Shown: positions 3,345 to 64,000 of the stretch, piece by piece
Position numbering within the stretch: position 1 is the first letter of the stretch
Layout: each line of letters starts with the position of its first letter
Assembly: GCF_001429185.1 (NCBI RefSeq)
Contig: NZ_LMIW01000008.1
Coordinates: 856,056-920,055, forward strand
DNA: 64,000 bases
Source of the DNA: Terrabacter sp. Root85
GTDB taxonomy: Bacteria > Actinomycetota > Actinomycetes > Actinomycetales > Dermatophilaceae
Direction: 5' to 3'
The notes under the pieces: model-generated
What the model saw: the letters and a program-made list of their open reading frames with translations, nothing else
Databases searched by the model: none
Told to the model about the DNA's origin: nothing
Translations under genes and position numbers: made by a program

Positions 3345-5477
3345 GTGGCCTCCGCCTCACGACCCGCTCCCTCCGGCAACGGCGACTACACCGCCCGCCA
3401 CCTCCAGGTCCTCGAGGGCCTCGAGGCCGTGCGCAAGCGCCCCGGCATGTACATCGGCTCGACCGACCAGCGCGGCCTCATGCACTGCCTCTGGGAGATC
3501 ATCGACAACGCGGTCGACGAGGCCCTGGCCGGCGTGTGCACCGACATCGAGGTCATCCTCAGCGGCGACGGGTCCATCGAGGTCCGTGACAACGGTCGCG
3601 GCATCCCCGTCGACATCGAGCCCCGCACCGGCCTGTCCGGTGTCGAGGTCGTCTTCACCAAGCTGCACGCGGGTGGCAAGTTCGGTGGCGCGTCGTATGC
3701 CGCCACGGGTGGTCTCCACGGGGTCGGCGCCTCCGTCGTCAACGCCCTGTCCGCGCGGCTCGACGTCGCGGTCGACCGCGGCAGCAAGACGTACGGCATG
3801 AGCTTCCGGCGCGGCGAGCCCGGCACGTTCGCCGACCGCACGGCGATCCACTCGCCCGACTCGGAGTTCACGCCCTACGAGAAGAAGAGCGCGCTGCCCG
3901 TCGTCGGCAAGGCCAAGCGGGGCGTCACCGGCTCGCGTGTGCGCTTCTGGCCCGACCGGCAGATCTTCCTCAAGGACGCCGAGCTCGACTACGACGCCAT
4001 CCTCGGACGCGCCCGCCAGACCTCCTTCCTCGTCCCCGGCCTGCGCCTGGTCATCCGCGACGAGCGACGCCTCAAGGGCACGCCCGGCGAGGAGGGCACC
4101 GTCGAGGAGGTCTTCCAGCACGATGGCGGCATCACCGACTTCGTCGAGTACCTCGCGCCCGACACCCCGATCACCGACGTGTGGCGCCTCGAGGGCTCTG
4201 GCACGTTCACCGAGACCGTCCCGGTCCTCGACGTCAACGGCCACATGACCCCGACCGAGCTCGAGCGCGAGTGCGGTGTCGAGGTCGCCCTGCGCTGGGG
4301 TCAGGGCTACGACACGAAGGTCCAGTCCTTCGTCAACATCATCACCACGCCCAAGGGCGGCACCCACGTCACCGGCTTCGAGCAGTCCATCGTCAAGGTG
4401 TTCCGCAAGCAGCTCGAGGTCAACGCCCGACGCCTCAAGGTCGGCAACGACAAGCCCGAGAAGGACGACATCCTCGCGGGCATGACCGCCGTCGTCACGG
4501 TGCGTCTGGCCGAGCCGCAGTTCGAGGGTCAGACCAAAGAGGTCCTCGGCACCAACGCCGTGCGCGCCATCGTGGCCAAGGTCGTCGAGACGGAGCTGAC
4601 CGACCGCCTCACGTCGACCAAGCGCGGCGACAAGGCGCAGGCGGCCCTGCTGCTCGAGAAGGTCGTCTCCGAGATGAAGTCGCGCATCAGCGCGCGGCTG
4701 CACAAGGAGACCCAGCGGCGCAAGAACGCCCTCGAGAGCTCGACGCTGCCGTCGAAGCTGCGCGACTGCCGCACCACCGACGTCGAGCGCTCCGAGCTGT
4801 TCATCGTCGAGGGTGACTCGGCCATGGGCACCGCCAAGGAGGCCCGCAACTCCGAGTTCCAGGCGCTGCTGCCGATCCGGGGCAAGATCCTCAACGTCCA
4901 GAAGGCGTCGGTCTCCGACATGCTCAAGAACGCCGAGTGCGCCTCGATCATCCAGGTGATCGGCGCCGGCTCGGGTCGCAGCTTCGACCTCGGCGCGGCG
5001 CGCTACGGCAAGGTCATCATCATGACCGACGCCGACGTCGACGGCGCCCACATCCGCACGCTGCTGCTGACGCTCTTCTTCCGCTACATGCGTCCGCTCG
5101 TCGACGCCGGTCGCGTCTACGCCGCCATGCCGCCGCTGCACCGGCTCGAGGTCATCAACGCGGGCGCCAAGAAGAACGAGCTCATCTACACCTTCAACGA
5201 GCCCGAGATGCGCCGCACGCTGGCCCGCCTCGAGAAGTCGGGCAAGAAGATCAAGCAGCCGATGCAGCGTTACAAGGGTCTCGGCGAGATGGACGCCGAC
5301 CAGCTCGCCGACACGACGATGGACCCGCGTCACCGCACGCTGCGCAAGGTGACGATGCGTGACCTCGAGGCCGCCGAGCGCGTCTTCGAGCTGCTCATGG
5401 GCAACGAGGTCGCACCGCGCAAGGACTTCATCATCGAGTCCGCGGCCGAGGTCGACCGCGAGCGGATCGACGCCTGA
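3345..5477 (+). CDS. parE: DNA topoisomerase IV subunit B (ParE)
   Basis: About 710 residues from GTG 3345. The frame is open further upstream, but the conserved protein begins near RHLQVLEGLEAVRKRPGMYIG, so a start near 3345 is more credible than one at 3264. The GHKL ATPase has DNAVDEAL (around residue 54) and the GGLHGVGASVVNALS lid. The TOPRIM domain has EGDSAMG (residue 489 on) and DADVDGAHI (about 561), followed by the GLGEMDADQL motif. The partner parC lies 7 kb away on the opposite strand, and no gyrA is adjacent, which favours ParE over GyrB. With ParC it relaxes and decatenates DNA using ATP. Confidence 0.9.
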   Translation: MASASRPAPSGNGDYTARHLQVLEGLEAVRKRPGMYIGSTDQRGLMHCLWEIIDNAVDEALAGVCTDIEVILSGDGSIEVRDNGRGIPVDIEPRTGLSGVEVVFTKLHAGGKFGGASYAATGGLHGVGASVVNALSARLDVAVDRGSKTYGMSFRRGEPGTFADRTAIHSPDSEFTPYEKKSALPVVGKAKRGVTGSRVRFWPDRQIFLKDAELDYDAILGRARQTSFLVPGLRLVIRDERRLKGTPGEEGTVEEVFQHDGGITDFVEYLAPDTPITDVWRLEGSGTFTETVPVLDVNGHMTPTELERECGVEVALRWGQGYDTKVQSFVNIITTPKGGTHVTGFEQSIVKVFRKQLEVNARRLKVGNDKPEKDDILAGMTAVVTVRLAEPQFEGQTKEVLGTNAVRAIVAKVVETELTDRLTSTKRGDKAQAALLLEKVVSEMKSRISARLHKETQRRKNALESSTLPSKLRDCRTTDVERSELFIVEGDSAMGTAKEARNSEFQALLPIRGKILNVQKASVSDMLKNAECASIIQVIGAGSGRSFDLGAARYGKVIIMTDADVDGAHIRTLLLTLFFRYMRPLVDAGRVYAAMPPLHRLEVINAGAKKNELIYTFNEPEMRRTLARLEKSGKKIKQPMQRYKGLGEMDADQLADTTMDPRHRTLRKVTMRDLEAAERVFELLMGNEVAPRKDFIIESAAEVDRERIDA

Positions 5478-5607
5478 GCGCAGCGATCCAGGCCCCTGAC
5501 GTGTCTGTGGGGTGACGGGACCTCCGGCGCGGCACAGCATGCCGTGCTTACGATGTGTCCCTGCCGGCGCGACTCCCTCCGCCGGTACGCGTCGAGAAGG
5601 GGAATCG

Positions 5608-6899: not shown

Positions 6900-7787
6900 A
6901 TGACGACGACGCTGCTGACGAGGGTGAAGAGCAAGCTCTTCGTCCACGCGCGCCGCAAGTCACGCAGCCTCCTCGAGGGGGAGTACGCCTCCGTCTTCCA
7001 CGGTCGCAGCCTCGACTACGACGACCTGCGCGACTACGTCCCGGGCGACGAGGTGCGCGACATCGACTGGCGGGCCACCGCCCGCAGCCAGTCGCCGCTC
7101 GTCAAGCGCTACGTCGCGACGCGGAAGCAGAACCTCATGCTCGTCATCGACACCGGCCGCGGGATGGCGGCCACGACCCGCAGCGGCGAGCCGAAGAAGT
7201 CGGTGGCCATCGCGGCGGCCGGCCTCGTCGGCTACCTCGCGCAGCGCCACGGAGACCTCGTCGGGCTCGTCCGCGGCACCGCCGGCTCGACGGTCGCGCA
7301 CGACCTGCGCGGCTCCGAGGCGCACCTCGAGCTGTTGCTGCGCGCCGTGGACGCGGCGACCGTCCTCGACGGCGACCAGAGCAACCTCGCGACGCAGCTG
7401 CGCTGGATCGTCCGCAACGTCCGCCGCCGCCTCGTGCTGCTCATCGTCGCCGACGACAAGGAGCTCGACCCGGCGCTCGACGAGCTGCTGCGCCGTCTCC
7501 ACGTCCAGCACGAGATCCTCTGGATCACCGTCGAGGACGCCGACCCCACGGCCATCGAGGGGGACCGGACGGCATACGACGTCGCCGACACGTACACGCT
7601 GCCGACGCTGGTGCGGCTCGACCCGCGGGTGCGCGCGGCGTATGCCGCCTCGGTCGCCGAGCGCGTGCGGCGCACGACCGAGCTGCTCGACCGCCGCGGG
7701 ATCAACCATGCCCGTCTCGGGTCGTCCGACGAGGTCGTCGCGACGGTCTTCGCCCTGCTCGAGAGGCAGCGTCGTGCGCGCCGCTGA
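6900..7787 (+). CDS. DUF58 domain protein (Bat-type operon)
   Basis: 295 residues beginning 26 bp after moxR. The DUF58 signature is clear: GRSLDYDDLRDYVPGDEVRDIDWRATARS near residues 36-65, followed by a VWA-like fold with an LVIDTGRGM strand (about residue 82). In the second position the MIDAS-like motif reads DTGRG rather than DxSxS, so metal binding is uncertain. DUF58 proteins always travel with MoxR ATPases and are taken to be a MoxR partner. There is no signal peptide, so it is cytoplasmic. It overlaps the next gene by 14 bp, indicating translational coupling. Confidence 0.9.
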   Translation: MTTTLLTRVKSKLFVHARRKSRSLLEGEYASVFHGRSLDYDDLRDYVPGDEVRDIDWRATARSQSPLVKRYVATRKQNLMLVIDTGRGMAATTRSGEPKKSVAIAAAGLVGYLAQRHGDLVGLVRGTAGSTVAHDLRGSEAHLELLLRAVDAATVLDGDQSNLATQLRWIVRNVRRRLVLLIVADDKELDPALDELLRRLHVQHEILWITVEDADPTAIEGDRTAYDVADTYTLPTLVRLDPRVRAAYAASVAERVRRTTELLDRRGINHARLGSSDEVVATVFALLERQRRARR

Positions 7788-8256
7788 CGCCCCGCCCCCG
7801 GGCTTCTACGCTCCCGACCCGTATGCCGCGACGTGGCTCTGGATCGGCGTCGGCGCGCTCGTGCTCGTCGCCGCCTGGTACGTCTGGGTGTGGTGGTCGA
7901 CGCGCGAGAGGAAGGTCGTCGTCCCGCCACGCATCACGTCGGACCGGCTCTCACGCCTGCGCGCCGACTACACCCGGCAGATCGACCTCGTGCTCGACCG
8001 GGCCGCGGCCGGCGAGATCAGCCAGCGTCGGGCGCACCAGCAGCTCAGCGTCCTCGTGCGCCACTTCGTCCAGGAGGTGTCGGGGATCCACGCCCCGACG
8101 ATGACGCTCACCGAGCTCAACGCGACGGGATCCCGGCTGACCCCGGTCTCGCAGGTCGTCGGATCGCTCTATCCCGGTGAGTTCGGCCCGCGTGAGACGG
8201 CGACCCTCGTCGGGGCGGGCACCGTCGCCAAGCAGGTGGTGGCGCGATGGAGCTGA
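7774..8256 (+). CDS. Single-pass membrane protein, DUF4381-like
   Basis: 160 residues from GTG 7774, which overlaps the end of the DUF58 gene by 14 bp; a longer reading from 7642 would be antisensical N-terminal extension inside DUF58. After a short outside segment (APPPGFYAPDPYAATW) there is one membrane helix (about residues 24-43) and then a cytoplasmic helical domain. The place between DUF58 and the VWA genes is that of the DUF4381 protein of Bat operons, and size and topology agree; the sequence match is judged by eye. It overlaps the following VWA gene by 10 bp. Confidence 0.75.
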   Translation: MRAADAPPPGFYAPDPYAATWLWIGVGALVLVAAWYVWVWWSTRERKVVVPPRITSDRLSRLRADYTRQIDLVLDRAAAGEISQRRAHQQLSVLVRHFVQEVSGIHAPTMTLTELNATGSRLTPVSQVVGSLYPGEFGPRETATLVGAGTVAKQVVARWS

Positions 8257-9236
8257 ACGGCCTCGACCTCAAGTGGCCGGGCGTGCTCGGCCTCGGGACG
8301 CTCCTCGCGGCCCTGCTCGCGTATGCCGTCTACCGGCTCATGTCCCGCCGGCAGGCACGAGCGTCGGCGGCGGTCGCCAACTCGAGCGCGTTGACCGAGC
8401 TGCCGGAGTACCGCCGGGCGCTGCGCCTGCACCGGATCCGGATGGCCGTGCTCGCGTCCAGCGCCGTGCTCCTCGGCGGGGCGGCCCTCGTGGGCGCAGC
8501 CCGACCGCTCGACACCACCATCGACAAGCCCCAGACCCGCAGCCGCGACATCATGCTGTGCCTCGACATCTCCGGCTCGATGGCCGCCTACGACGCGACC
8601 CTCGTGTCGACGTTCAAGACGCTCGTCTCGAGCTTCGAGGGCGAGCGGATCGGGCTCGTCATCTTCAACTCGTCGGCCGCCACGGTCTTCCCGCTCACCG
8701 ACGACTACGACTTCATCAACGGGGAGCTCGACTCCGCGGGACGTGCGCTGACGGGCGACCCGGAGTACGACTCCTTCTTCGCCGGCACCTTCAACGGCCG
8801 CGGCACCTCGTTGATCGGCGATGGCCTCGCCACCTGCGTCTCCAGCTTCGACAAGGTCGACGTCCAGCGCGCCCGCTCGGTCGTCTTCGCCACCGACAAC
8901 CACCTGGCCGGGCGGCCGATCATCGACGTCGACGAGGCCGGTGCGCTGGCCAAGGCCAAGGGCGTCCGCGTCTACGGGCTCAACCCGGAGGAGGACGGGG
9001 CCGACCAGGAGGCGGTGGAGATGCGCGACATCGTCACCGGCACCGGCGGACGCTACTTCGCGATGAGCGACCAGGCGGCCATCAAGGGGATCGTCGACGC
9101 GGTCCAGGCCCAGGAGGCGACGCTCATCGACGCCGCTTCCCGTGCCCTCTACTCCGACAACCCGACGCTGCCGATCACGCTCGCCGGGATCGGGCTCATC
9201 GGCGTCATCGGTGCGAGCCGGAGGTGGGCGTCGTGA
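8247..9236 (+). CDS. VWA domain membrane protein (BatA-like)
   Basis: 329 residues with a canonical MIDAS motif DISGS (from residue 107), a threonine further on in NGRGTSL and an ATDN strand, as in metal-binding von Willebrand A domains. Two N-terminal hydrophobic segments (about 13-31 and 66-85) and one at the C-terminus (ITLAGIGLIGVIGA) give the BatA/BatB topology with the VWA domain held at the membrane. It likely binds a protein partner through Mg2+ and works with the MoxR ATPase encoded 2.6 kb upstream. It overlaps both neighbours (10 and 4 bp). Confidence 0.9.
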   Translation: MELNGLDLKWPGVLGLGTLLAALLAYAVYRLMSRRQARASAAVANSSALTELPEYRRALRLHRIRMAVLASSAVLLGGAALVGAARPLDTTIDKPQTRSRDIMLCLDISGSMAAYDATLVSTFKTLVSSFEGERIGLVIFNSSAATVFPLTDDYDFINGELDSAGRALTGDPEYDSFFAGTFNGRGTSLIGDGLATCVSSFDKVDVQRARSVVFATDNHLAGRPIIDVDEAGALAKAKGVRVYGLNPEEDGADQEAVEMRDIVTGTGGRYFAMSDQAAIKGIVDAVQAQEATLIDAASRALYSDNPTLPITLAGIGLIGVIGASRRWAS

Positions 9237-12256: not shown

Positions 12257-14793
12257 GCGTCGCCGCCGTCGGACGGGGCGTCGCCATCGCCGAGGGCATC
12301 CGTCGTGACCGCGACCCCCGACTCCGCGTCGGTGGACTGGGAGGTGGCGGGTGGGGCCGCGACGTGCGCGATGACCGCGGCCGTCGGGACGCCCGAGCCG
12401 TCGCGGCGACCGTCGGCGGGCGGCAGCTCGATGGCGACGCCGTTGGCGGCGGCGGCCCGGGCCGGGGTGTTGCCGGCGAAGGCGAGCACGAGCGTGTCCT
12501 CACCCTTGAGGAAGCGGTGGCAGCGAACGCCACCGGTCGCGCGTCCCTTCGGGGGGTACTCGGCATACGGCGTCACCTTGAGCGACCCGCCCTCGGTGCC
12601 GGGCAGCGCACCCGACGAGCCGGACGACGTGACGACGACACCCTCGCGGGCGGGGTCGGCGACGCCGAAGAAGGCGACTCGGGCGCCGGCGGCGAGCTTG
12701 ATGCCCGCCATGCCGCCGGCCGAGCGGCCTTGTGGGCGAACGGACTTCGCCGCAAAACGCAGCAGCTGTGCGTCGGTCGTGACGAAGACGAGGTCGAGGT
12801 CCTCACGGTCGGCGACCGCGGCTCCGACGACGCGGTCGCCGTCCTTGAGGCTGATGACGTCCCAGTCGTTGCTCTTGGGTGCCTCGGACGTGACCCGCTT
12901 GACGACACCGGCCGCCGTGCCGACGGCGAAGACCGGTGCGTCGGCACCGATCGGCACGATCGTCACCGGCTCCTCGCCCTTGCCGAGGTCGACGTACGCC
13001 GCGAGAGGCGCACCGCCCGACAGGGTGGGGGAGCCGTTGGTCGGCGGCAGGGTCGGCAGGTCGAGCGCCGAGAGGCGCACCATCCGGCCGGCGCTCGTCA
13101 CGAGCCCGAACTCGCCGCGTGCGGTCGTGCGGACGGCGCCGACGACGACGTCGTGCTTCGAGCGTGAGCCCTCGGCGGTGACGGGCTCGGCCGTGCCGGT
13201 GCGGGCCAGCAGGCCGGTCGAGCTCAGCAGGACCCAGCACGGGTCGTCGGCGATCTCGAGCGGCGAGGCGGCCGTCGCCGTCGCGCTGGCACCTGAGCTC
13301 TCGAGGAGCACCGTGCGACGCGGGGTGCCGTGCGCCTTGGCGACGTCGGCGAGCTCGGTCGACACGAGCTTGAGCAGCAGCTTCTCGTTGTCGAGCAGGG
13401 CGCGCAGCTCCTCGATGGCGCGCTCGAGCTCGGTCTTCTCGTTCTCGAGCTCGATGCGCGAGAACTTGGTGAGCCGGCGCAGCTGGAGGTCGAGGATGTA
13501 CGTCGCCTGGGCCTCGGAGAGGTCGAAGACGTCCATGAGCCGCGCGCGGGCGGTGCCGGCGTCGTCGGAGCCGCGGATGACCTGGATGACCTCGTCGATG
13601 TCGACGATGGCGATGAGCAGTCCCTCGACGAGGTGCAGCCGCTCCTCGCGCTTGGCCAGGCGGTGGGCGGTGCGTCGGCGCACGACGTCGGTGCGGAAGT
13701 CGACGTAGACCTTGAGGAGGTCCTTGAGGCCCATGGTGCGCGGTTGGCCCTCGACGAGCGCGACGTTGTTGATGCCGAAGTTCTCCTCCATCGGCGTCAG
13801 CTTGTAGAGCTGCTCGAGGACGGCGTCGGGGTTGAAGCCGTTCTTGATCTCGATGACGAGGCGCAGGCCGTGCTGTCGGTCCGAGAGGTCCTTGAGGTCG
13901 GCGATGCCCTGCAGCTTCTTGCCCTGGACGAGGTCCTTGACCTTGTCGATGACCTTCTCTGGTCCGACGAGGTAGGGCAGCTCGGTGACGACGATGCCCT
14001 TGCGCCGCGGCGTGATCGACTCGATGCGTGCCGTCGCCCGGGTGCGGAAGCTGCCACGCCCGGTGAGGTAGGCGTCGCGGATGCCCTCGAGGCCGACGAT
14101 CTTGCCGCCGCAGGGCAGGTCGGGCCCCGGGACGAACTTCATGAGGTCCTCGAGCGAGCACGTCGGGTTGGCGATGAGGTGCCGCGCGGCGCCGATGACC
14201 TCGACGAGGTTGTGCGGGGGCATGTTCGTGGCCATGCCGACCGCGATGCCAGCCGCGCCGTTGACGAGGAGGTTGGGGTACGCCGCGGGCATCACCCCGG
14301 GCTGGAGCTGGGTGTCGTCGTAGTTCGGGACGAAGTCGACGGTGTCCTCGTCGAGGCCCGCGACCATGAGCAGCGCGGCATTGGCCATGCGCGCCTCGGT
14401 GTAGCGGGCCGCGGCCGGACCGTCGTCGAGCGAGCCGAAGTTGCCGTGACCGTCGACGAGGGGCAGGCGCAGGGTGAACGGCTGCGCCATGCGCACGAGG
14501 GCGTCGTAGATCGCCTGGTCGCCGTGCGGGTGGTACTTGCCCATCACCTCGCCGACGACGCGCTGGCTCTTGACGTGGCCGCGGTCGGGACGCAGCCCGA
14601 GCTCGTTGGCCCCGTAGAGGATGCGTCGCTGGACGGGCTTGAGCCCGTCCCGGGCGTCGGGCAGCGCCCGGCTGTAGATGACGCTGTAGGAGTACTCGAG
14701 GAAGGCGTTCTGCATCTCCTCCTCGACGTCGATGCCGACGATCTTCTCCTCGAAGTCCTCCGGTGGAGGCGGGGGGGTCTTTCCACGGGCCAT
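12253..14793 (-). CDS. parC: DNA topoisomerase IV subunit A (ParC)
   Basis: 846 residues. The N-terminal breakage-reunion domain contains SYSVIYSRALPDARDGLKPVQRRIL (about 35-59) and the catalytic tyrosine in AARYTEARM (Tyr131), with the quinolone-determining region GKYHPHGDQAIYD (85-97). A coiled-coil segment (residues about 400-480) and a C-terminal beta-pinwheel follow, ending in an Asp/Gly tail. It cuts and rejoins DNA with ParE. The ATG at 14793 is preceded by GGAG about 14 nt upstream. GyrA is distinguished from ParC here only by the presence of parE nearby and absence of gyrB-dnaA context. Confidence 0.88.
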   Translation of the reverse strand: MARGKTPPPPPEDFEEKIVGIDVEEEMQNAFLEYSYSVIYSRALPDARDGLKPVQRRILYGANELGLRPDRGHVKSQRVVGEVMGKYHPHGDQAIYDALVRMAQPFTLRLPLVDGHGNFGSLDDGPAAARYTEARMANAALLMVAGLDEDTVDFVPNYDDTQLQPGVMPAAYPNLLVNGAAGIAVGMATNMPPHNLVEVIGAARHLIANPTCSLEDLMKFVPGPDLPCGGKIVGLEGIRDAYLTGRGSFRTRATARIESITPRRKGIVVTELPYLVGPEKVIDKVKDLVQGKKLQGIADLKDLSDRQHGLRLVIEIKNGFNPDAVLEQLYKLTPMEENFGINNVALVEGQPRTMGLKDLLKVYVDFRTDVVRRRTAHRLAKREERLHLVEGLLIAIVDIDEVIQVIRGSDDAGTARARLMDVFDLSEAQATYILDLQLRRLTKFSRIELENEKTELERAIEELRALLDNEKLLLKLVSTELADVAKAHGTPRRTVLLESSGASATATAASPLEIADDPCWVLLSSTGLLARTGTAEPVTAEGSRSKHDVVVGAVRTTARGEFGLVTSAGRMVRLSALDLPTLPPTNGSPTLSGGAPLAAYVDLGKGEEPVTIVPIGADAPVFAVGTAAGVVKRVTSEAPKSNDWDVISLKDGDRVVGAAVADREDLDLVFVTTDAQLLRFAAKSVRPQGRSAGGMAGIKLAAGARVAFFGVADPAREGVVVTSSGSSGALPGTEGGSLKVTPYAEYPPKGRATGGVRCHRFLKGEDTLVLAFAGNTPARAAAANGVAIELPPADGRRDGSGVPTAAVIAHVAAPPATSQSTDAESGVAVTTDALGDGDAPSDGGDA

Positions 14794-14849: not shown

Positions 14850-15470
14850 TCACGGGTTCTCACCTGCCACGCCGAAACGGCCCCAGTGGGCCACGTCGCG
14901 ACCGGTGCGCCGGTGCCGTCGGAGGCTCGGGCTCCTGGGTCCCGGGACGGCATACCCGATCGACACGACGCCCACGATGCTGCGCGTCGAGGGGATGCCG
15001 AACGCCTCGTGGACGGCGCCGTGGCGTTCCGGCGGCACCCCGAAGAAGAGGCTGCCGAGGCCCTCGTCGGTGGCGGTGAGCAGGATGAGGAGCGAGGCCA
15101 TGCCCGTGTCGACGTCCCAGTAGGGCACCGGCCAGCGCGCCTCGTCCCGATCGGTCCAGCCCTTGTCGGGCGCCGCGTAGCGGTCGAGGTAGGCGTCCTT
15201 GTGCGAGAGGCACAGCACGAGCACCGGGGCGGCGCGTATGCCGTCGAGCCAGGGGTCGCTCGCCGCGCCGGGCTCCGTCGTGGCCGCCCAGAAGGCGTCC
15301 CGCTCGGGCGGTGTCGTCAGCACGACGAAGTCCCAGCCCTGGCTGAACCCGGCACTGGGGGAGCGCACCGCGTTGGCGAGGCAGCGCTCCACGACCTCGC
15401 GCGGGACCTCCCGGTCGGGGTCGTAGCGACGGACCATGCGTCGGGAGCGGACGACGTCGGTGAACTCCAT
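14850..15470 (-). CDS. Nitroreductase-family flavoprotein
   Basis: 206 residues from ATG 15470; longer upstream readings run into the divergent gene. The N-terminal RSRRMVRRYDPDREVPREVVERCLANAVRSPSAG segment is the FMN-binding start of the nitroreductase fold, and GLGSLFFGVPPERHGAVHEAFGIP is the conserved region near the second FMN contact. Such enzymes reduce nitro groups, quinones or similar acceptors with NAD(P)H. The gene stands 57 bp upstream of parC on the same strand. Its start faces the GNAT fusion gene with 55 bp between, and a GAGTGT hexamer 6 nt before ATG suggests a leaderless message. Confidence 0.88.
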   Translation of the reverse strand: MEFTDVVRSRRMVRRYDPDREVPREVVERCLANAVRSPSAGFSQGWDFVVLTTPPERDAFWAATTEPGAASDPWLDGIRAAPVLVLCLSHKDAYLDRYAAPDKGWTDRDEARWPVPYWDVDTGMASLLILLTATDEGLGSLFFGVPPERHGAVHEAFGIPSTRSIVGVVSIGYAVPGPRSPSLRRHRRTGRDVAHWGRFGVAGENP

Positions 15471-20759: not shown

Positions 20760-20875
20760 CGGAGTCCCTCGCCCACCGATGGCGTATGCCGTCCTGCGGG
20801 CTCCCGAGGGCCGCTCACCCGGGTGCAGCGGCCCCGAGCTCATCGGGCGCGACTGGCGTGTGAGGCGCGGCGCCG

Positions 20876-25310: not shown

Positions 25311-25374
25311 TGTCGTCCTGGAGGAGCGGACGGCATACGCCCGCTGGTGTCGAGGTGTGTCGCTGGGACGCCGC

Positions 25375-53895: not shown

Positions 53896-55785
53896 TCAGG
53901 CCGGGGCCTGGAGCGCGCGGAGACGCAGCGCGATCTGCAGCTCGAGTGCGTGGTCGGGGTGCTGCCAGGACTCCCCGAGCAGGGCCGCGATGCGCTCGAG
54001 CCGTTGCGAGACCGTGTTGACGTGGACGTGGAGGGTGCCCGCGGCGTGGCGTGGGCTGCCGCCCGCGGCGAAGTAGGCCGCGAGCGTGCCCACGAGGTCG
54101 GTGCCGCGCCGCTCGTCGTAGTCGAGGACGGGGCCGAGCAGCTTGCGGACGTACTCGTCGACGTCCGGCGACGAGCCCACGATGAGCCCGGCGAAGCCGA
54201 GCTGGGTCGCCGCGGCGCCCTTGCCTCGGTGGCCGAGGGCGATGAGGGCTCCGACGGTGCGGTGGCCCTCCTCGTGCGCCTCGGTGATCCCGTCGACGTC
54301 GGTGACCGGACCGACACCGGCCACCGTGACGCACGTGCGCTTGCCGATCCGGGCTGCCACGGCGCGGGCCAGGCCGTCGGGCTCGGTGCCGGGCACGAGG
54401 GCGATGACGTCGCCGTCGTGGGAGCCGACGAGCGAGGCCTCACCGGTGGCGGCACTGGCGGAGATGAGCAGGGCCCGGTGTCCGGTCGGCTCGTCGCCGC
54501 GGAGCACGAGCAGGCAGAAGGGCCGCTGGGGGTCGAAGCCGACGGCGCGGGCGAGCGCGAGGCGCTCCTCGCGCGAGCCACGCGCGCTGACGAGGTCGCT
54601 GACGAGTCGGTTGCGGGCGGACTGCCTGGCGTCGGCGGCCTGGCGCTCGAAGAGCAGGACGAGGGCGGTGACGACACCGGCGCGCTCGACGGTGCGCTGG
54701 TCCGAGTCGCTGAGGGTCGGGCCGCCGACGTAGATCGTGCCGAGCCGTTCGCGGGCTGCGGTGACGGCGACGGCATAGACACCGTCCCGTTCGACGAGGC
54801 GACCGGCGGCCAGGCCGGGGAGCGCGTTGAGGGCCGCGAACGGGTCGCCACCGGCAGGGTCGTGCTCCGGCGCCGGGCCGGACGAGCTGTGGCGATGCCC
54901 GTTCTCGTCGACGAGCACGGCCCACCCTCCGAGCAGCTCGGCGAGGGCGTGCGTGATGTCGTCGACCCCACCGCCGCCGAGCACGAGGGAGGCGAAGCGG
55001 TCGTGGGCCGCGGCGGCCTTCTCCACGCCCTCGGCATACTGCCGCACGGTCTCGTGGGCGTCCGAGAGGGCGGCCAGCGCGTTCTCGGCGTCGGCGAGGG
55101 CGCGTGTCTGCACGAGGGTCACCGCGGCCAGGGTGGCGAGGTTGCCGAGGAGTCCGACCTCCTCGCGGGTGAACGGGCGCGACGACCGGTTGGCTGCGAA
55201 GAGCACACCGACGAAGTGCTTCTCGACGATGAGGGGCGTCCCGCAGATCGCGATGATGCCCTCCTCGCCCACGGCTCCGTCGATGGCGTTGGTGTGCCGG
55301 AAGCGCTCGTCGGCCCAGTAGTCGGCGGTCCAGTAGGGCTTGTGGGTCGAGGCGACGAGACCGCCGAGGCCGGCCCCGAGCGCCAGACGCACGGACTGGA
55401 ACGCCGCCGAGACGGACCCGTCGGTGGCCCGCATGAAGGTGTCGCCGGCGTCGGGGTCGTAGAGCGTGAGGTAGGCGAGGTCGGTGCCGACGAGGCGGCG
55501 GGCCCGGCGGACGATCGCGTCGAGCACCGAGCCCGGGTCGCTCTCGGTCGCGAGCTCACGGGCCGTGTCGAGCAGGGCCGCGAGGCCGGCCTCGCGGTGC
55601 TGGTGGACCTCGCGGGCGCTCGTGATGCGCAGGGCCAGCTCCCGGGCCTCGGCCGGGGCGTCAGCGGCGGCGATCTCGGCGACGGTGGCGTCGGCGGCGA
55701 GCAGCTCGAGCAGGGCGATGACCTGGTCGGCCTGCTCGGTGCCCACGTGCTCGGCGGGCGGCTGCGTCTCGCTGCGGGTGGCCAC
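53896..55785 (-). CDS. GAF - PucR-type transcriptional regulator
   Basis: 629 residues from GTG 55785. A helical N-terminus is followed by a GAF sensor domain (about 85-225; LVGTDLAYLTLYDPDAGDTFMRATDGS, GIIAICGTPL), a CdaR-type GGDEF-like middle region (about 390-500), and a C-terminal PucR HTH (LVGTLAAYFAAGGSPRHAAGTLHVHVNTVSQRLERIAALLG). PucR/CdaR regulators activate catabolic genes in response to small molecules. It lies 68 bp downstream of the 3-hydroxybutyrate dehydrogenase gene on the same strand but has a TAGGAT-N6-GTG promoter of its own. It probably controls neighbouring catabolic genes. Confidence 0.9.
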   Translation of the reverse strand: MATRSETQPPAEHVGTEQADQVIALLELLAADATVAEIAAADAPAEARELALRITSAREVHQHREAGLAALLDTARELATESDPGSVLDAIVRRARRLVGTDLAYLTLYDPDAGDTFMRATDGSVSAAFQSVRLALGAGLGGLVASTHKPYWTADYWADERFRHTNAIDGAVGEEGIIAICGTPLIVEKHFVGVLFAANRSSRPFTREEVGLLGNLATLAAVTLVQTRALADAENALAALSDAHETVRQYAEGVEKAAAAHDRFASLVLGGGGVDDITHALAELLGGWAVLVDENGHRHSSSGPAPEHDPAGGDPFAALNALPGLAAGRLVERDGVYAVAVTAARERLGTIYVGGPTLSDSDQRTVERAGVVTALVLLFERQAADARQSARNRLVSDLVSARGSREERLALARAVGFDPQRPFCLLVLRGDEPTGHRALLISASAATGEASLVGSHDGDVIALVPGTEPDGLARAVAARIGKRTCVTVAGVGPVTDVDGITEAHEEGHRTVGALIALGHRGKGAAATQLGFAGLIVGSSPDVDEYVRKLLGPVLDYDERRGTDLVGTLAAYFAAGGSPRHAAGTLHVHVNTVSQRLERIAALLGESWQHPDHALELQIALRLRALQAPA

Positions 55786-56865: not shown

Positions 56866-58440
56866 GTGGAGACCGTCGTGAGGACGAGATGTGGGACGGT
56901 GCAGGGCTTCGTGCACGAGGGGGTGCACACGTTCCTCGGCATCCCCTATGCCGCACCACCCGTCGGAGCCGCTCGGCTCCGGCCACCCCGGCCACCGGAC
57001 CCGTGGCAGGGCGTCCGCGACGCGACGAGGCCGGGTGCCGAGCCGCCTCAGGTGGCGCCACCGTCGTCCGGTGGGCCGCCGGCCGGAGCGGGGGAGAGCT
57101 GGGACGACGTCACCGGCGCCTTCGAGCAGGTGCGACGCGCTGCCCCGTCCTCGGACTACCTCAACCTCAACATCTGGACGCCCGAGCCCGGTCCGGGCGG
57201 TCGGCCGGTGATGGTCTGGATCCAGGGCGGCATGTTCGAGCTCAGCTCGACGGCGGCGTACGACGGACGACAGTTCGCACGTGACGGGGTCGTGTGCGTC
57301 GTTATCAACTGGCGCCCCGGCGCAGAGGGCTTCCTGTACCTCGACGACGGCATCGCCGACCTCGGTCTGCTCGACCAGGTCGCAGCCCTGGCCTGGGTGC
57401 GCGACAACATCGCGGAGTTCGGCGGCGACCCGGGCCGCGTGACCGTCTTCGGGGAGTCGGCCGGGGCGATGAGCATCGGCTGCCTGCTGGCGATGCCGGA
57501 GGCCGCGGGACTCTTCCGCCGAGCCGTGCTGCAGAGCGGTGCCGCGCACCACGTGAGCGAGCCAGAGCACGCCCTGAGCATCGCCCACGACCTCGCCCAC
57601 CGCCTCGGCGTCCCGCCGACGCGCGAGGCCATCGCAGGCACCGGGGTCGCGCGGCTGCTGACGGCCCAGGCCGACCTGAAGCGTGACCTGCTCGCCGACC
57701 CGGACCCGGAGCGCTGGGGCCCAGCGGTGGTGACGAGCACGATGCCCTGGCAGCCCGTCGTCGACGGGTCGGTGCTTCCGGGGCGACCGATCGACCGGAT
57801 CGCCGCGGGCTCGGCCGCCGACGTCGACGTCCTCATCGGCACCAACACCGAGGACTGGCGGCTGTGGCTCATGGTGAGTGGAGCGTTCGCCGGGATCACC
57901 GACGACATCCTGTGCGGGCCGGTCAGCACCCATGGCCACCAGTGTCTCGAGGCCTACGGCCTCGACCCGCAGGTCGCGCTGCACGCCTACCGGGCGCACT
58001 ACCCGCGAGCCGTTCCCGGTGACCTGCTGGCTGCGGTGCAGACGGACTGGTGGATGCGGATCCCCGCCATCAGACTCGCCGAGGCGCACGCGTACGCCCG
58101 CTCACCCGCGCCTTCCCCGGGAGCTCAGGCCGGGACCTACATGTACGAGTTCGCCTGGGGTGCGCCGGGACTCGGCGCGGTGCACGCCCTCGAGGTACCC
58201 TTCGTCTTCGACACGGCGAGGGGCGACACGCCACTCTTCGGGCCGTTGCTCGGAGCGGACCCGCCCCAGGAGCTGGCGCGGACGATGCACTCCGCCTGGG
58301 TGGCCTTCGCGTCGACCGGGGACCCGGGTTGGGCGGCATACGACACGGACCACCGCAGGACGATGCGCTTCGACACCCCCAGCGCTGTGGTCGACGACCC
58401 TCGTGTCTGGGAGCGGGCGTTCTGGGAGGGCCTGCGGTGA
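56866..58440 (+). CDS. Type B carboxylesterase/lipase
   Basis: 524 residues from GTG 56866. The family start TRCGTVQGFVHEGVHTFLGIPYAAPP, the oxyanion region WIQGGMFELSS (usually HGG; here QGG), and the nucleophile GESAGAMS (Ser198) are clear, with a C-terminal histidine expected near MHSAWVAFASTGDPGW. No signal peptide, so it is cytoplasmic. It cleaves carboxylic esters; the QGG replacement of HGG may alter activity. It overlaps the E2-like acyltransferase gene by 4 bp, an unusual partner. Confidence 0.9.
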   Translation: METVVRTRCGTVQGFVHEGVHTFLGIPYAAPPVGAARLRPPRPPDPWQGVRDATRPGAEPPQVAPPSSGGPPAGAGESWDDVTGAFEQVRRAAPSSDYLNLNIWTPEPGPGGRPVMVWIQGGMFELSSTAAYDGRQFARDGVVCVVINWRPGAEGFLYLDDGIADLGLLDQVAALAWVRDNIAEFGGDPGRVTVFGESAGAMSIGCLLAMPEAAGLFRRAVLQSGAAHHVSEPEHALSIAHDLAHRLGVPPTREAIAGTGVARLLTAQADLKRDLLADPDPERWGPAVVTSTMPWQPVVDGSVLPGRPIDRIAAGSAADVDVLIGTNTEDWRLWLMVSGAFAGITDDILCGPVSTHGHQCLEAYGLDPQVALHAYRAHYPRAVPGDLLAAVQTDWWMRIPAIRLAEAHAYARSPAPSPGAQAGTYMYEFAWGAPGLGAVHALEVPFVFDTARGDTPLFGPLLGADPPQELARTMHSAWVAFASTGDPGWAAYDTDHRRTMRFDTPSAVVDDPRVWERAFWEGLR

Positions 58441-60854: not shown

Positions 60855-60875
60855 CGGCAAATCCGCCGCACGGCC

Positions 60876-60915: not shown

Positions 60916-60946
60916 GAACAGCGATGGCGTATGCCGTGTGGCTGGG

Positions 60947-63079
60947 TCAGCCGCGTGCGTTGGCGACGCCGACGGGGAGGAAGCGCGAGCCCGTGACGGC
61001 CTCGGCCACGCCGGTCCGGTCGAGGAGCGGGGTGATGCCGCCGTTCCAGAACTGGAAGCCGGCGCCGCTGATCATCGCGAGGTCGATGTCCATCGGCGCC
61101 TGTGCGACACCCTCGTCGAGCATCCGTCGTGCCTCGTCGGCCAGGACCGTGAGGACACGCTGCCGCACCTGGGCGAGGTCGAGCACGACCGGCTCGGCCG
61201 GCTTCTCGATGAGCTCGGCGACCTCGGGGTCGAGCACCGGACGGCCCGAGCTGAGGTCGTAGAAGCCGCGCTTGCCGGCCGCGACGATCCGCTGGAGCGT
61301 CGGCGAGGCGTAGAAGCGGTCCGGGAAGGCCCGGACGAGCGTCTCGCCGTTGTGCAACGCGATGGCCGGCCCGACGAGCCCGATAAGGACGAAGGGCGGC
61401 ATCGGCGCCAGACCGGCGAAGGCGCGGTCGACGACCTCGATCGGCGTGCCCTCGTCGAGGATCTTCGCGGCCTCGCCCATGAAGCGGCCAAGGAGTCGGT
61501 TGACGATGAACGACGGCCGGTCCGCGGCGCGGATGCACGTCTTCTTCAGCGCCTTCCCGACGGCGAAAGCCGTTGCGAGAGTGGGGTCGTCGGTTTGCTC
61601 GCCCGGGATGATCTCGAGCAGCGGCATGACGGCCACCGGGTTGAAGAAGTGGAAGCCGACGACGCGCTCCGGGTGCTCGAGCGCCGATGCCATCTCGGCG
61701 ATCGACAGGCTCGACGTGTTGGTCGCGAGCACGCACTCGGCCGACACGACGGCCTCCACCTCGGCGAAGACCTGCTGCTTGACCGACATCTCCTCGAAGA
61801 CGGCCTCGATGACGAAGTCGGCATCGGCGAAGCCGTCCTTGCTCGTCGACCCGGTCACGAGGGCCTTGTAGCGGTTCAGCTTGTCGGCGTTGAGGCGTCC
61901 CTTGCCCGCGAGCTTGTCCAGCTCGGCGTGGACGTAGCCGACGCCCTTGGCGGCGCGGTCGTCGTCGATGTCGGTGAGAACGACGGGCACCTGGAGGCGC
62001 TGGATGAAGAGCAGCGCGAGCTGGCTCGCCATGAGCCCGGCGCCGACGATGCCCACCTTCGTGACCTTGCGGGCGAGCTGCTTGTCGGGAGCGCCAGCAG
62101 GCCGCTTGGCGCGCTTCTGCACGAGGTCGAAGGCGTAGAGGCCGGCACGGAGCTCGTCGCTCATGAGCAGGTCGGCGAGCACCTCGTCCTCGGCGGCGAA
62201 GCCCTCCTCGCGGGTCGCCGTGCGAGCCGCCGCGAGCAGGTCGAGGGCGGCATACGGGCTCCTGGCCTGTCGGCCGGTCTTGACGTCGGCGAGGCCCTTG
62301 GCCCTGGCGATGGCGGCATTCCACACCGTCTCGTCGCGGTCGACCTCGGGACGCACGACGGTGACCTCACCGGAGAGGACGCGGGCGGCCCAGGCGATCG
62401 ACTCCTCGAGGAAGTCGGCCGGCTCGAAGAGCGCGTCGGCCATGCCGAGCCGGTACGCGTCGACTCCCTTGAGCATGCGGTTCTGGCTCAGCGGGTTGTC
62501 GATGACGACGGTGATGGCCTTCTCGACACCGATGAGGTTGGGCAGCATCCAGCAGCCGCCCCAGCCGGGGACGAGGCCGAGGAAGACCTCGGGGAGCGCG
62601 ACGGCGGGCACTCCGGCGCTCATCGTCCGGTAGGTCGCCGACAGCGCCAGCTCGACGCCACCGCCCATGGCCGCGCCGTTGACGAACGCGAACGTCGGGA
62701 CCGGCAGGTCGGAGAAGGCGGCGTATGCCGCGTGGCCGGCCCGGGCGATCTCGAGCGCCTGGTCGCGCGACCCGATGAACGGCACGCCGGTGAGGTCGGC
62801 GCCGACGGCGAAGATGAACGGCTTGCCGGTGACGGCCACGGCGACGATCTCGCCCGCCTCGGCGCGCTCGCGCAGGCGCTCGACCGTGGCGGCGAGGCCG
62901 GCGATCGACTGCGGGCCGAACGTGTTGGGCTTGGTGTGGTCGAAGCCGTTGTCGAGGGTGACGAGCGCCAGGGTCCCGGCGCCGCCCGGGAGGGCGACGT
63001 CGTGCACCGGGGTGCGGGTGACGACCTCGGACGCGAAGTCGGCTGCGGCCGTGGGCTTGTCGGTCGTGGTGGCGCTCAC
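60947..63079 (-). CDS. fadB: Fatty-acid oxidation multifunctional protein: enoyl-CoA hydratase / 3-hydroxyacyl-CoA dehydrogenase
   Basis: 710 residues from GTG 63079 (GTGA overlap with fadA). The N-terminal third is a crotonase domain (FAVGADLTGVPF, FVNGAAMGGGVELALSATYR with the oxyanion glycines, PEVFLGLVPGWGGCWMLPNLIG). The dehydrogenase follows from about residue 335: VGIVGAGLMASQLALL (NAD-binding), HFFNPVAVMPLLEII with the catalytic His, and a C-terminal domain with NRLLGRFMGEA. With the thiolase it carries out the last three steps of beta-oxidation. A strong terminator lies downstream. Confidence 0.93.
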   Translation of the reverse strand: MSATTTDKPTAAADFASEVVTRTPVHDVALPGGAGTLALVTLDNGFDHTKPNTFGPQSIAGLAATVERLRERAEAGEIVAVAVTGKPFIFAVGADLTGVPFIGSRDQALEIARAGHAAYAAFSDLPVPTFAFVNGAAMGGGVELALSATYRTMSAGVPAVALPEVFLGLVPGWGGCWMLPNLIGVEKAITVVIDNPLSQNRMLKGVDAYRLGMADALFEPADFLEESIAWAARVLSGEVTVVRPEVDRDETVWNAAIARAKGLADVKTGRQARSPYAALDLLAAARTATREEGFAAEDEVLADLLMSDELRAGLYAFDLVQKRAKRPAGAPDKQLARKVTKVGIVGAGLMASQLALLFIQRLQVPVVLTDIDDDRAAKGVGYVHAELDKLAGKGRLNADKLNRYKALVTGSTSKDGFADADFVIEAVFEEMSVKQQVFAEVEAVVSAECVLATNTSSLSIAEMASALEHPERVVGFHFFNPVAVMPLLEIIPGEQTDDPTLATAFAVGKALKKTCIRAADRPSFIVNRLLGRFMGEAAKILDEGTPIEVVDRAFAGLAPMPPFVLIGLVGPAIALHNGETLVRAFPDRFYASPTLQRIVAAGKRGFYDLSSGRPVLDPEVAELIEKPAEPVVLDLAQVRQRVLTVLADEARRMLDEGVAQAPMDIDLAMISGAGFQFWNGGITPLLDRTGVAEAVTGSRFLPVGVANARG

Positions 63080-64000
63080 TGGGCGATCTCCTCGTCGGTC
63101 GTGGTCGTCGTCGAGGACTCGTAGTCCTCGTGGTGCGGGTTCTCCCAGATGACGGCGCCGCCCATGCCGATGCCGATGCACATCGCGGTCAGGCCGTAGC
63201 GGACCTCGGGATGCTCCTCGAACTGCCGCGCGAGCTGGGTCATGAGGCGCACGCCGGAGCTCGCCAGCGGATGACCCGTGGCGATGGCGCCGCCGTACTC
63301 GTTGACGCGAGGGTCGTCGTCGGCGATGCCGAAGTGGTCGAGGAAGGCGAGCACCTGGACGGCGAACGCCTCGTTGAGCTCGAAGAGACCGATGTCGCCG
63401 ATCGTCAGGCCGGCCTTGGCGAGGGCCTTCTCGGTGGCAGGGACCGGACCGACGCCCATGACCTCGGGCTCGACGCCGACGAACGAGAAGGACACGAGGC
63501 GCATCCGGACCGGCAGGCCGAGCTCGGTGGCGGCCGCCTCGGAGGCGAGGAGGCACGCGGTCGCACCGTCGTTGAGCCCGGCCGCGTTGCCCGCGGTGAC
63601 GTTGCCGTGCGCGCGGAACGGCGTCTTGAGCTGGCCGAGGTCCTCGACGGTCGTGCCGGGACGCGGCGGCTCGTCGGCGGTGGCCAGGCCCCAGCCCTGC
63701 TCGGCGTGTCGCGTCGCGACGGTGACGAGGTCGCGCTGGATCTTGCCGTCGGCATACGCCTGGGCGAGCTTGTCCTGGCTGCCCACCGCGAAGGCGTCGG
63801 AGCGCTGCTTGGTCAGCTGCGGGAACCGGTCGTGGAGGTTCTCGGCGGTCTTGCCCATGACGAGTGCGTCGGGGTCGACGATCTTCTCGGACACGATGCG
63901 CGGGTTGGGGTCGACGCCCTCGCCCATGGGGTGGCGGCCCATGTGCTCGACGCCGCCGGCGATGGCGATGTCGTAGGCACCGAAGGCGATCGAGCTCGCG
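63076..64000 (-). CDS. fadA: Acetyl-CoA acyltransferase (thiolase), N-terminus outside the window
   Basis: The frame is open to the right edge; 307 residues are visible. The middle and C-terminal thiolase motifs are present: IAIAGGVEHMGR, HGNVTAGNAAGLNDGA, LFELNEAFAVQVLAFLDHFG (catalytic-region Asn-Glu-Ala-Phe), GGAIATGHPLASSG (His) and MCIGIGMGGAVIWEN (second Cys). The nucleophilic Cys near residue 90 lies beyond the window. It splits 3-ketoacyl-CoA, releasing acetyl-CoA. It is the upstream gene of the fadA-fadB unit. Confidence 0.93.
   Translation of the reverse strand, partial: ASSIAFGAYDIAIAGGVEHMGRHPMGEGVDPNPRIVSEKIVDPDALVMGKTAENLHDRFPQLTKQRSDAFAVGSQDKLAQAYADGKIQRDLVTVATRHAEQGWGLATADEPPRPGTTVEDLGQLKTPFRAHGNVTAGNAAGLNDGATACLLASEAAATELGLPVRMRLVSFSFVGVEPEVMGVGPVPATEKALAKAGLTIGDIGLFELNEAFAVQVLAFLDHFGIADDDPRVNEYGGAIATGHPLASSGVRLMTQLARQFEEHPEVRYGLTAMCIGIGMGGAVIWENPHHEDYESSTTTTTDEEIAQ

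What the first reader, a model, noticed from the sequence alone, without database searches (positions are those of the whole stretch)
3694..63758. A strongly over-represented 8-mer, CGTATGCC/GGCATACG
I find about 28 exact copies by eye. With 71 percent G+C and independent bases about 2 would be expected on both strands of 64 kb. The excess is at DNA level, not protein level: copies occur as xCG-TAT-GCC (Ala/Pro/Ser/Thr-Tyr-Ala), as GCA-TAC-Gxx (Ala-Tyr), as GGC-ATA-CGx using the rare Ile codon ATA (17593 and, on the minus strand, 15235), as CGT-ATG-CC (48817), and in five intergenic gaps. Tyr is otherwise almost always TAC. This resembles highly iterated or architecture motifs (HIP1, Chi, KOPS, uptake sequences), but I know of no description of this one.
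Basis: partly seen in the sequence, partly recalled or inferred. Interest (0 to 1): 0.8.

Follow-up and report, generated by a model that had tools for sequence, protein, structure and literature searches.

The report
DNA-uptake-like genome password in actinobacteria
A soil actinobacterium and many of its relatives carry one short DNA word scattered over a thousand times through their chromosomes, with related 'dialect' spellings in other genera, and it looks like the recognition tags that a few other bacteria use to take up DNA of their own kind.

Summary
All 28 CGTATGCC copies continue into G; the invariant core is GTATGCCG (34 in the window). The genome is a Terrabacter (Dermatophilaceae) with 1,469 CGTATGCCG against 223 for the reversed control.

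The excess is at DNA level: 87 intergenic copies against 2.7 expected (606-kb sample); Tyr is TAT 79:22 inside the motif, about 4% elsewhere. Motif TAT codons survive in Humibacillus (9 of 12; other TAT 1 of 10) but not in an equally diverged genus (0 of 10) that is instead rich in CGGATGCCG.

By my thresholds 32 of 52 Dermatophilaceae genera are enriched for one or both spellings. A second, unnamed family (probably Microbacteriaceae, inferred) has up to 2,929 CGGATGCCG.

Copies are strand-balanced, spaced more evenly than random, denser between genes, and some form hairpin pairs. This resembles neisserial uptake sequences and argues against KOPS and RecBCD-Chi; HIP-like repair drive or an architectural role remain possible. 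ComEA/ComEC and Tad genes are present, also in unenriched genera; no receptor was found and uptake was not tested. Best reading: an undescribed uptake-sequence system with dialects in actinobacteria (0.66).

The parts
2474..2481 (-). GTATGCCG core copy (T-flank) in a gene
3694..3702 (+). CGTATGCCG copy, first of the 28 reported, in a gene
7570..7578 (-). CGTATGCCG copy antisense to a gene; inverted pair with 7639-7647
7639..7647 (+). CGTATGCCG copy in a gene; inverted pair with 7570-7578
7820..7828 (+). CGTATGCCG copy in a gene
8320..8328 (+). CGTATGCCG copy in a gene
12561..12569 (-). CGTATGCCG copy in the gene for a DNA gyrase/topoisomerase IV subunit A-like protein
14948..14955 (-). GTATGCCG core copy (G-flank) in a gene
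15235..15243 (+). CGTATGCCG copy antisense to a gene, read there through the rare Ile codon ATA
17592..17600 (-). CGTATGCCG copy antisense to a gene, read there through the rare Ile codon ATA
18998..19006 (+). CGTATGCCG copy in a gene
20783..20791 (+). intergenic CGTATGCCG copy with extended flanks (cgatggc upstream)
22990..22997 (+). GTATGCCG core copy (T-flank) in a gene
24693..24701 (+). CGTATGCCG copy in a gene
25331..25339 (-). intergenic CGTATGCCG copy
28349..28357 (+). CGTATGCCG copy in a gene
30258..30266 (-). intergenic CGTATGCCG copy
32605..32613 (+). CGTATGCCG copy in a gene
37480..37488 (-). CGTATGCCG copy antisense to a gene
40799..40807 (+). intergenic CGTATGCCG copy just downstream of the aconitase-family gene
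41680..41688 (+). CGTATGCCG copy in a gene
43099..43107 (+). CGTATGCCG copy in a gene
44172..44179 (-). GTATGCCG core copy (G-flank) in a gene
44439..44447 (+). CGTATGCCG copy in a gene
48817..48825 (+). CGTATGCCG copy in a gene, read as CGT-ATG-CCG
50046..50054 (+). CGTATGCCG copy in a gene
51734..51742 (+). CGTATGCCG copy in a gene
52426..52433 (-). GTATGCCG core copy (G-flank) antisense to a gene
55032..55039 (-). GTATGCCG core copy (A-flank) in a gene
58334..58342 (-). CGTATGCCG copy antisense to a gene
60928..60936 (+). intergenic CGTATGCCG copy with extended flanks (cgatggc upstream, tgtggc downstream)
62248..62256 (-). CGTATGCCG copy in a gene
62722..62730 (+). CGTATGCCG copy antisense to a gene
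63750..63758 (-). CGTATGCCG copy in a gene

Best explanation
GTATGCCG is most likely the core of a DNA uptake sequence. During natural transformation a surface or cell-wall receptor, probably tied to the Tad (Flp) pilus and ComEA/ComEC, binds it and favours import of DNA that carries it. Recombination of imported fragments then copies motif-bearing alleles into the population, so the motif accumulates by point substitution wherever the protein code or an intergenic gap permits, on both strands and fairly evenly. When receptor specificity shifts, the word changes and a new dialect takes over. SHOWN: the excess; that it is at DNA level; maintenance and turnover by substitution; dialects; hairpin pairs; strand balance; even spacing; presence of uptake-type genes. 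INFERRED: that uptake bias is the cause, that a receptor exists, and its link to the Tad pilus.
For: Genome counts: 1,469 CGTATGCCG against 223 control. Core GTATGCCG 279 against 10.9 expected in 606 kb. One-base variants within the core stay near or below expectation, except a rise of GGATGCCG (up to fourfold as GGATGCCGT) and two- to threefold of GTAGGCCG. DNA level: intergenic 87 against 2.67; TAT:TAC 79:22 in the motif context against 87:2037 elsewhere. Maintenance: in 7 Terrabacter genomes 99 of 136 site comparisons are conserved and 37 changed, all by substitution, none gapped. Humibacillus keeps 11 of 18 sites where 29% of all 8-mers are conserved; genus G034, equally diverged but with the other spelling, keeps 0 of 14 where 30% are (Fisher p=0.0004). 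Dialects. Traits of neisserial uptake sequences seen in passages of PMC2397512 and PMC3630211 and found here too: close inverted pairs (16 opposite, 5 same-strand within 100 bp; hairpins), intergenic over-representation (0.91 against 0.38 per kb), mean spacing of the order of 1.5 kb (1.9 kb here), change by point mismatch rather than deletion, lineage dialects. Uptake-type genes: ComEA- and ComEC-like domains, PF03772 in 92 of 98 relatives, PF00437 ATPase in 98 of 98. Tad genes are required for transformation in the actinobacterium Micrococcus luteus (passages of PMC4322843).
Against: No uptake or competence experiment exists here; one search for the family name with natural transformation found no paper. 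ComEC and PF00437 genes are just as present in unenriched genera, and no receptor was identified. PilM, a marker of type IV pili of the class that carries ComP and the predicted ComN (class recalled), is absent from the own genome and from 57 of the 59 other family genomes. One-mismatch variants are rarer than I would expect under slow molecular drive. Only 87 of 279 copies are intergenic, whereas most neisserial ones are. Enrichment is not constant within a genus everywhere: in f19 genus g78, G095 has 2,245 CGGATGCCG and G228 175, and Intrasporangium flavum shows none in 22 kb while I. oryzae has 10. Intrasporangium calvum (G023) is enriched yet shares only 1 of 17 window sites, and its copies sit mostly in a longer, mainly intergenic element, possibly another kind of repeat. 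The TAT contrast is weak in some Terrabacter genomes (G001 8 of 13 against 4 of 7). The window itself is 19:9 by strand for the 28 copies. Enrichment goes with lack of RecC, which this model did not predict.
Confidence: 0.66

Rival explanations
1. HIP-like motif: a methyltransferase-guided mismatch or short-patch repair system converts near-matches into GTATGCCG and thereby creates and keeps the sites, as Elhai proposed for HIP1 in cyanobacteria. Dialects would follow the enzyme's specificity.
For: HIP1 shows the same patchy excess and replacement by alternate words, each with a cognate methyltransferase (passages of PMC4390886). The scarcity of one-mismatch variants in the core fits an active conversion process.
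Against: HIPs are palindromic and this word is not. Repair drive predicts neither inverted hairpin pairs nor extended intergenic flanks, nor spacing more even than random. No search for a cognate methyltransferase was made.
Confidence: 0.13
2. Architectural site: a sequence-specific nucleoid or chromosome-organising protein binds GTATGCCG about every 2 kb, and selection keeps the sites spread out.
For: Even spacing (CV 0.743 against 0.912 expected, 0 of 2,000 simulations as low), strand balance and maintenance.
Against: The word is lost or respelled between genera at about 82% identity, and 18 of 52 genera in the family lack the two words tested, which is odd for a core chromosome function. 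Hairpin pairs are not explained.
Confidence: 0.12
3. Chi-like recombination hotspot for a helicase-nuclease other than RecBCD, such as AdnAB.
For: An 8-base non-palindromic word on both strands; enriched genera tend to lack RecC (26 of 32) while most unenriched ones have it (11 of 18), so a different enzyme may be at work (p=0.0045, not corrected for phylogeny).
Against: Known Chi sites are skewed to the leading strand (recalled), whereas copies here total 86:85 over 21 stretches, the window itself being 20:14, and 76:80 in G034. Intergenic enrichment, inverted pairs and extended flanks do not fit a word read as single-stranded DNA. AdnAB is recalled to lack Chi and was not searched.
Confidence: 0.05
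4. Artefact of sequencing adapters, codon-pair bias or repeated elements.
For: The Illumina adapter contains CGTATGCCG (recalled; some hits may be adapter lists, but none was opened).
Against: No adapter continuation in any fetched sequence; 8 further genomes of the genus, and G023, taken as the I. calvum type-strain genome published in 2010, show the excess; flanks are diverse; intergenic and rare-codon frames are used.
Confidence: 0.01

Closest known systems
DUS of Neisseriaceae (DNA uptake sequences with dialects)
   Same: Thousands of copies of a short non-palindromic word, lineage dialects, intergenic over-representation, close inverted pairs forming hairpins, mean spacing of the order of 1-2 kb, change by mismatch rather than deletion (passages of PMC2397512 and PMC3630211).
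   Different: Found in Gram-positive, high-G+C actinobacteria; a minority of copies is intergenic (87 of 279); unrelated word, although GTATGCCGTC shares ATGCCGTC with the meningococcal DUS as recalled, probably by chance; no PilM in nearly all of the family, so no ComP-like receptor expected; function untested.
USS of Pasteurellaceae
   Same: Conserved core of 8-9 bases plus weaker extended flanks (USS flanks recalled), dialects.
   Different: Different sequence and phylum; the predicted receptor ComN/PpdA (abstract and outline of PMC12616744) is a type IV minor pilin of a system not seen here.
HIP1 of cyanobacteria
   Same: Patchy, extremely over-represented octamer kept at DNA level, with alternates replacing it in some genomes (passages of PMC4390886).
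   Different: HIP1 and alternate HIPs are palindromic and tied to methyltransferases; this word is not palindromic and has flanks and hairpin pairs; methyltransferases were not surveyed.
Chi and KOPS
   Same: Short over-represented non-palindromic octamers.
   Different: Those are oriented with replication (recalled); this one is strand-balanced, and the own genome has no RecC hit.

Membership tests
DNA uptake sequence (DUS/USS), as a kind | Hundreds to thousands of copies far above expectation | tested here: met
   1,469 copies genome-wide against 223 control; 279 against 10.9 in 606 kb
DNA uptake sequence (DUS/USS), as a kind | Non-palindromic word on both strands without replication polarity | tested here: met
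   86:85 over 21 stretches; G034 dialect 76:80 over 8 stretches; origin and terminus not mapped
DNA uptake sequence (DUS/USS), as a kind | Dialects that differ by lineage | tested here: met
   Terrabacter 9 of 9 genomes share one spelling, but copy number varies within some genera of f19
DNA uptake sequence (DUS/USS), as a kind | Intergenic over-representation and close inverted pairs forming hairpins | tested here: met
   0.91 against 0.38 per kb; 16 opposite and 5 same-strand pairs within 100 bp; folds of 14 of the 16 (no shuffled control; U-tracts not tested)
DNA uptake sequence (DUS/USS), as a kind | Competence uptake machinery present | tested here: met
   ComEA- and ComEC-like domains and PF00437 ATPases; not discriminating, because unenriched genera have them too
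DNA uptake sequence (DUS/USS), as a kind | Cognate receptor that co-varies with the dialect | tested here: inconclusive
   none found beside comEC (by eye) or in 20 tad loci
DNA uptake sequence (DUS/USS), as a kind | Preferential uptake of motif-bearing DNA | not testable with these tools
   needs a transformation or uptake assay
Neisseriaceae DUS / Pasteurellaceae USS proper | Type IV pilus of the class that carries ComP or the predicted ComN (marker PilM, recalled) | tested here: not met
   no PilM in the own genome and in 57 of the 59 other family genomes; so it is not filed as a member of either
HIP1 | Palindromic octamer | tested here: not met
   GTATGCCG is not its own reverse complement; flanks do not make single copies so
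HIP1 | Cognate methyltransferase | not tested
   no base-modification data; methyltransferases not surveyed
Chi (RecBCD) | RecBCD present | tested here: not met
   no RecC (PF04257) in the own genome; 1 of 9 Terrabacter genomes has it
Chi (RecBCD) | Skew to the leading strand | tested here: not met
   by stretch, not by mapped replichore
KOPS / polar architecture motifs | Strand polarity along replichores | tested here: not met
   by stretch, not by mapped replichore

The most novel reading that the evidence does not exclude
Two families of Actinomycetales (Dermatophilaceae and a second one, probably Microbacteriaceae) share an ancient sequence-specific DNA-uptake code, G-N-ATG-N-C-G/T, that evolves as dialects. 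It would be the first uptake-sequence system in Gram-positive bacteria, read through the cell wall by a receptor of the Flp (Tad) pilus rather than by a type IVa minor pilin, and setting who can exchange genes with whom in soil and water actinobacteria.
Probability: 0.55. Interest if true: 0.93.

Novelty: new variant of a known kind. Interest (0 to 1): 0.82.

Why it matters
In the literature seen here, abundant uptake sequences are described for Neisseriaceae and Pasteurellaceae. Flp-pilus-dependent transformation is documented in Micrococcus luteus; the words 'uptake sequence', 'uptake signal' and 'sequence-specific' do not occur in that paper's main text (PMC4322843). A dialect-forming code in two actinobacterial families would offer an independent origin for studying why uptake sequences evolve (selection for self-DNA or molecular drive), would predict which species exchange DNA, and would give a practical key, adding the right word to donor DNA, for transforming soil actinobacteria. 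If it is not uptake, a maintained, dialect-forming octamer with no known reader is still a striking open problem that can be tested at once.

Tried and rejected
Adapter artefact: no continuation in any fetched sequence. Tyr-Ala codon-pair bias: rejected by intergenic excess and TAT:TAC contrast. KOPS/polar motif: strand balance. RecBCD-Chi: no RecC in the own genome. Type IV pilus marker PilM: not associated. ComEC or PF00437 presence as the discriminating gene: near universal; 3 of the 6 genomes without a ComEC hit are enriched family genomes in many contigs (G037, G041, G042).

Receptor search: the genes beside comEC were looked at by eye in 20 loci (my gene finder missed ComEC in 3 of them, G011, G022, G049). 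In 20 tad-type loci (14 from enriched or respelled genera, 6 unenriched) proteins were clustered (Tad names by eye). No cluster is in all 14 and in none of the 6. Five clusters (8, 12, 13, 14, 16) occur only in enriched or respelled loci, but in 6 to 9 of the 14; I take them as shared neighbourhood of a subgroup (one, cluster 14, looks by eye like a transcription regulator). A small TadE/F-like pilin beside flp is hit in 13 of 14 and in 4 of 6; the own-genome locus there is a different tad cluster and the G032 locus is cut at 11 kb.

Plasmid search with 8 kb of the motif-free island: one 91-base hit to an IS region. One phage, Microbacterium phage Min1, holds 1 CGGATGCCG against 2.3 expected; its host's dialect is unknown, so this is weak.

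Literature searches for a prior description: in the held open library only, with capped lists (30 of 3,011 papers listed; 20 of 77; 12 of 151), so an earlier description cannot be excluded. Papers: passages of PMC3630211, PMC2397512, PMC4322843, PMC4390886 and PMC3035309; abstract and outline of PMC12616744; everything else only as search listings.

Limits: gene calls come from my own simple script, not a published caller; its coding fraction (83-84%) is low, so some 'intergenic' copies may be coding. Context statistics use 606 kb or less of 4.87 Mb. The labels rest on thresholds chosen after seeing the counts, one genome per genus, and on two words only, so an unenriched genus may use another; G009 is borderline. 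Site comparisons across Terrabacter genomes are not independent. The RecC association is not corrected for phylogeny.
Full report
WHAT WAS CHECKED. The window holds 28 CGTATGCC/GGCATACG copies; shuffles that keep dinucleotides give 0.89 on average and never more than 3. Every copy is followed by G. One-base variants of CGTATGCCG in the window are near expectation inside the core, with CGGATGCCG (12 against 3.1) the main exception. In a 406-kb sample the core GTATGCCG (171 copies) is preceded mostly by C and followed mostly by T or C; the window has 34 core copies. The window is G000:C8:856056-920055 of a 4.87-Mb genome in 15 contigs. The best named ComEC match is Terrabacter, 88% identical, so the genome is taken as Terrabacter, family Dermatophilaceae (family from general taxonomy, not from a call).

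GENOME-WIDE. CGTATGCC occurs 792+747 times against 165+180 for the reversed word, and CGTATGCCG 757+712 against 104+119. In 606 kb of this genome GTATGCCG has the highest score of all 8-mers counted at least 8 times (279 against 10.9).

DNA LEVEL, NOT PROTEIN LEVEL. Intergenic DNA alone has 87 copies against 2.67 expected, 0.91 per kb against 0.38 in genes. By gap type the density is 2.23 per kb between convergent genes (15 copies), 1.01 divergent (16), 0.89 tandem (29) in a 426-kb sample. In genes the word is used in several frames, including the rare ATA frame, but the Tyr-Ala frame dominates (76 of 112 core copies). Tyr is TAC 2,059 and TAT 166 times, yet in the context xxG-Tyr-GCC-G it is TAT 79 and TAC 22.

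MAINTENANCE AND TURNOVER. Orthologous stretches were fetched from 10 of the 12 genomes in which a window gene had been located. Conserved window sites, with the share of all 8-mers conserved in brackets: G003 19 of 19 (65%), G008 17 of 19 (64%), G007 12 of 18 (47%), G004 13 of 19 (44%), G005 16 of 21 (39%), G006 12 of 20 (40%), G001 10 of 20 (37%), G047 11 of 18 (29%), G034 0 of 14 (30%), G023 1 of 17 (24%). In some Terrabacter genomes the margin is modest. G047 is Humibacillus xanthopallidus by equal contig length. Over the seven Terrabacter genomes 99 of 136 comparisons are conserved, 37 differ by one to four substitutions and none by a gap. TAT codons kept as TAT, inside the motif against elsewhere: G003 12 of 12 against 2 of 11, G008 12 of 12 against 5 of 10, G007 6 of 11 against 1 of 10, G004 7 of 12 against 4 of 10, G005 10 of 13 against 3 of 11, G006 7 of 12 against 2 of 13, G001 8 of 13 against 4 of 7, Humibacillus 9 of 12 against 1 of 10, G034 0 of 10 against 1 of 9, G023 2 of 12 against 1 of 8. 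In G034 8 of the 10 are still Tyr. G034 is as similar to the window as Humibacillus (82%) but its genome is enriched for another word. G023 is enriched yet shares almost no sites.

DIALECTS. In one genome for each of 52 genera of the family, 32 are enriched by my thresholds for CGTATGCCG and/or CGGATGCCG, 2 are ambiguous and 18 unenriched. G034 has 2,294 CGGATGCCG and 19 CGTATGCCG, G024 1,941 and 102, G052 1,011 and 504. Some genera relax the sixth core base: GTATGDCG reaches 4,011 copies in G035 and 3,747 in G011 but only 86 in Terrabacter. In a second family of the order (f19; not named by any search, probably Microbacteriaceae from its size range and number of genera) CGGATGCCG reaches 2,929 copies, and by my tally by eye 45 of 120 genomes have 500 or more; copy number can differ within a genus there (g78: 2,245 and 175). 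G079 of that family also has 1,215 CGGATGCCT. A class-wide draw of 394 genomes shows a strong CGTATGCCG excess only within the own family, in 5 of its 8 members drawn; no other genome exceeds 132 copies. Named loci with visible excess include Humibacillus, Intrasporangium oryzae, Arsenicicoccus, Ornithinimicrobium, Knoellia, Tetrasphaera and two of three Phycicoccus loci; I. flavum, Dermacoccus abyssi and the third Phycicoccus locus have none in 22 kb each.

ANATOMY. Core copies total 86:85 by strand over 21 stretches, the window itself 20:14, and 19:9 for its 28 CGTATGCC copies; the G034 dialect is 76:80 over 8 stretches. Spacing, with copies within 100 bp merged, averages 1.93 kb with CV 0.743; none of 2,000 random placements was as even. 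Close pairs within 100 bp are 16 opposite and 5 same-strand, although the total (21) is only moderately above the 12.8 expected from uniform density. Of 14 of these 16 opposite pairs folded, 11 are intergenic, 4 of them between convergent genes; predicted hairpins range from -14.4 to -54.4 kcal/mol, without shuffled controls. The 86 intergenic copies with full flanks carry a weak extended consensus from about -9 to +18; hairpin partners were not removed before that count. G023, whose chromosome length of 4,024,382 bp equals that published for Intrasporangium calvum, mostly has the core inside a longer element GCCGTATGCCGCTGRGCYSGSTC; 23 of 34 copies are intergenic by my gene calls, and three places hold paired copies as perfect or near-perfect palindromes of about 36 bp.

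WHAT COULD READ IT. A ComEA-like protein (SLBB, HHH) and ComEC lie side by side; ComEC is in 92 of 98 relatives and the PF00437 ATPase in 98 of 98, 97 above its cut-off. PilM is in 18 of 98, only 2 of them in the own family. Tad genes are required for transformation in Micrococcus luteus (passages of PMC4322843). No gene cluster of the tad loci is in all enriched and no unenriched loci, though five flanking clusters occur only in a subset of the enriched. RecC is in 6 of 32 enriched and 11 of 18 unenriched genera (p=0.0045, uncorrected for phylogeny).

INTERPRETATION. Lineage dialects, intergenic excess, close inverted pairs as hairpins, mean spacing of the order of 1.5 kb and change by mismatch rather than deletion are described for neisserial uptake sequences in the passages I read (PMC2397512, PMC3630211). 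I therefore hold that this is an uptake-sequence system in actinobacteria, with the causal step, preferential uptake, inferred and untested. A HIP-like repair drive and an architectural role remain possible. Literature searches in the held library (lists capped) brought no description of such a motif in actinobacteria.

Noticed in passing
relatives G000-G059: RecC is rarer in genera enriched for the motif (6 of 32) than in unenriched ones (11 of 18); not corrected for phylogeny and unexplained.
   Followed up: partly
L198:8554-8583, L232:745-774, L232:17861-17890 (G023, Intrasporangium calvum by length): The core lies in a longer, mainly intergenic element, at these three places as paired copies forming a perfect or near-perfect palindrome of about 36 bp; it could be a distinct repeat family.
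   Followed up: partly
intergenic DNA of the Terrabacter sample: A palindromic octamer, ACTCGAGT, is over-represented between genes: 34 counted over both strands (17 sites) against 2.4 expected on the same count.
   Followed up: no
L048 and L219:1-4000 (contig C2 of the own genome): About 24 kb of lower G+C DNA with no motif copy, carrying an IS110-type transposase, a glycosyltransferase and other accessory genes; looks like a recent acquisition.
   Followed up: partly
L219:11490-11528: Three copies of the motif in tandem at 15-16 bp spacing.
   Followed up: no
L133, L134, L171, L178 (Nocardioides, Hamadaea, Marmoricola loci): Octamers around CGTACG are enriched, for example GCGTACGC in Hamadaea (34 counted over both strands, so 17 sites, in 22 kb); a possible separate family of iterated palindromes.
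   Followed up: no
L107 (Phycicoccus MAG), L103 (Arsenicicoccus): Further spellings: GAATGCCG (14 in 22 kb) and GTATGGCG (6 in 22 kb).
   Followed up: no
Terrabacter genome: GGATGCCG is mildly raised (130 against 59 in 606 kb), perhaps a trace of the other dialect or of Asp-Ala codon pairs.
   Followed up: no
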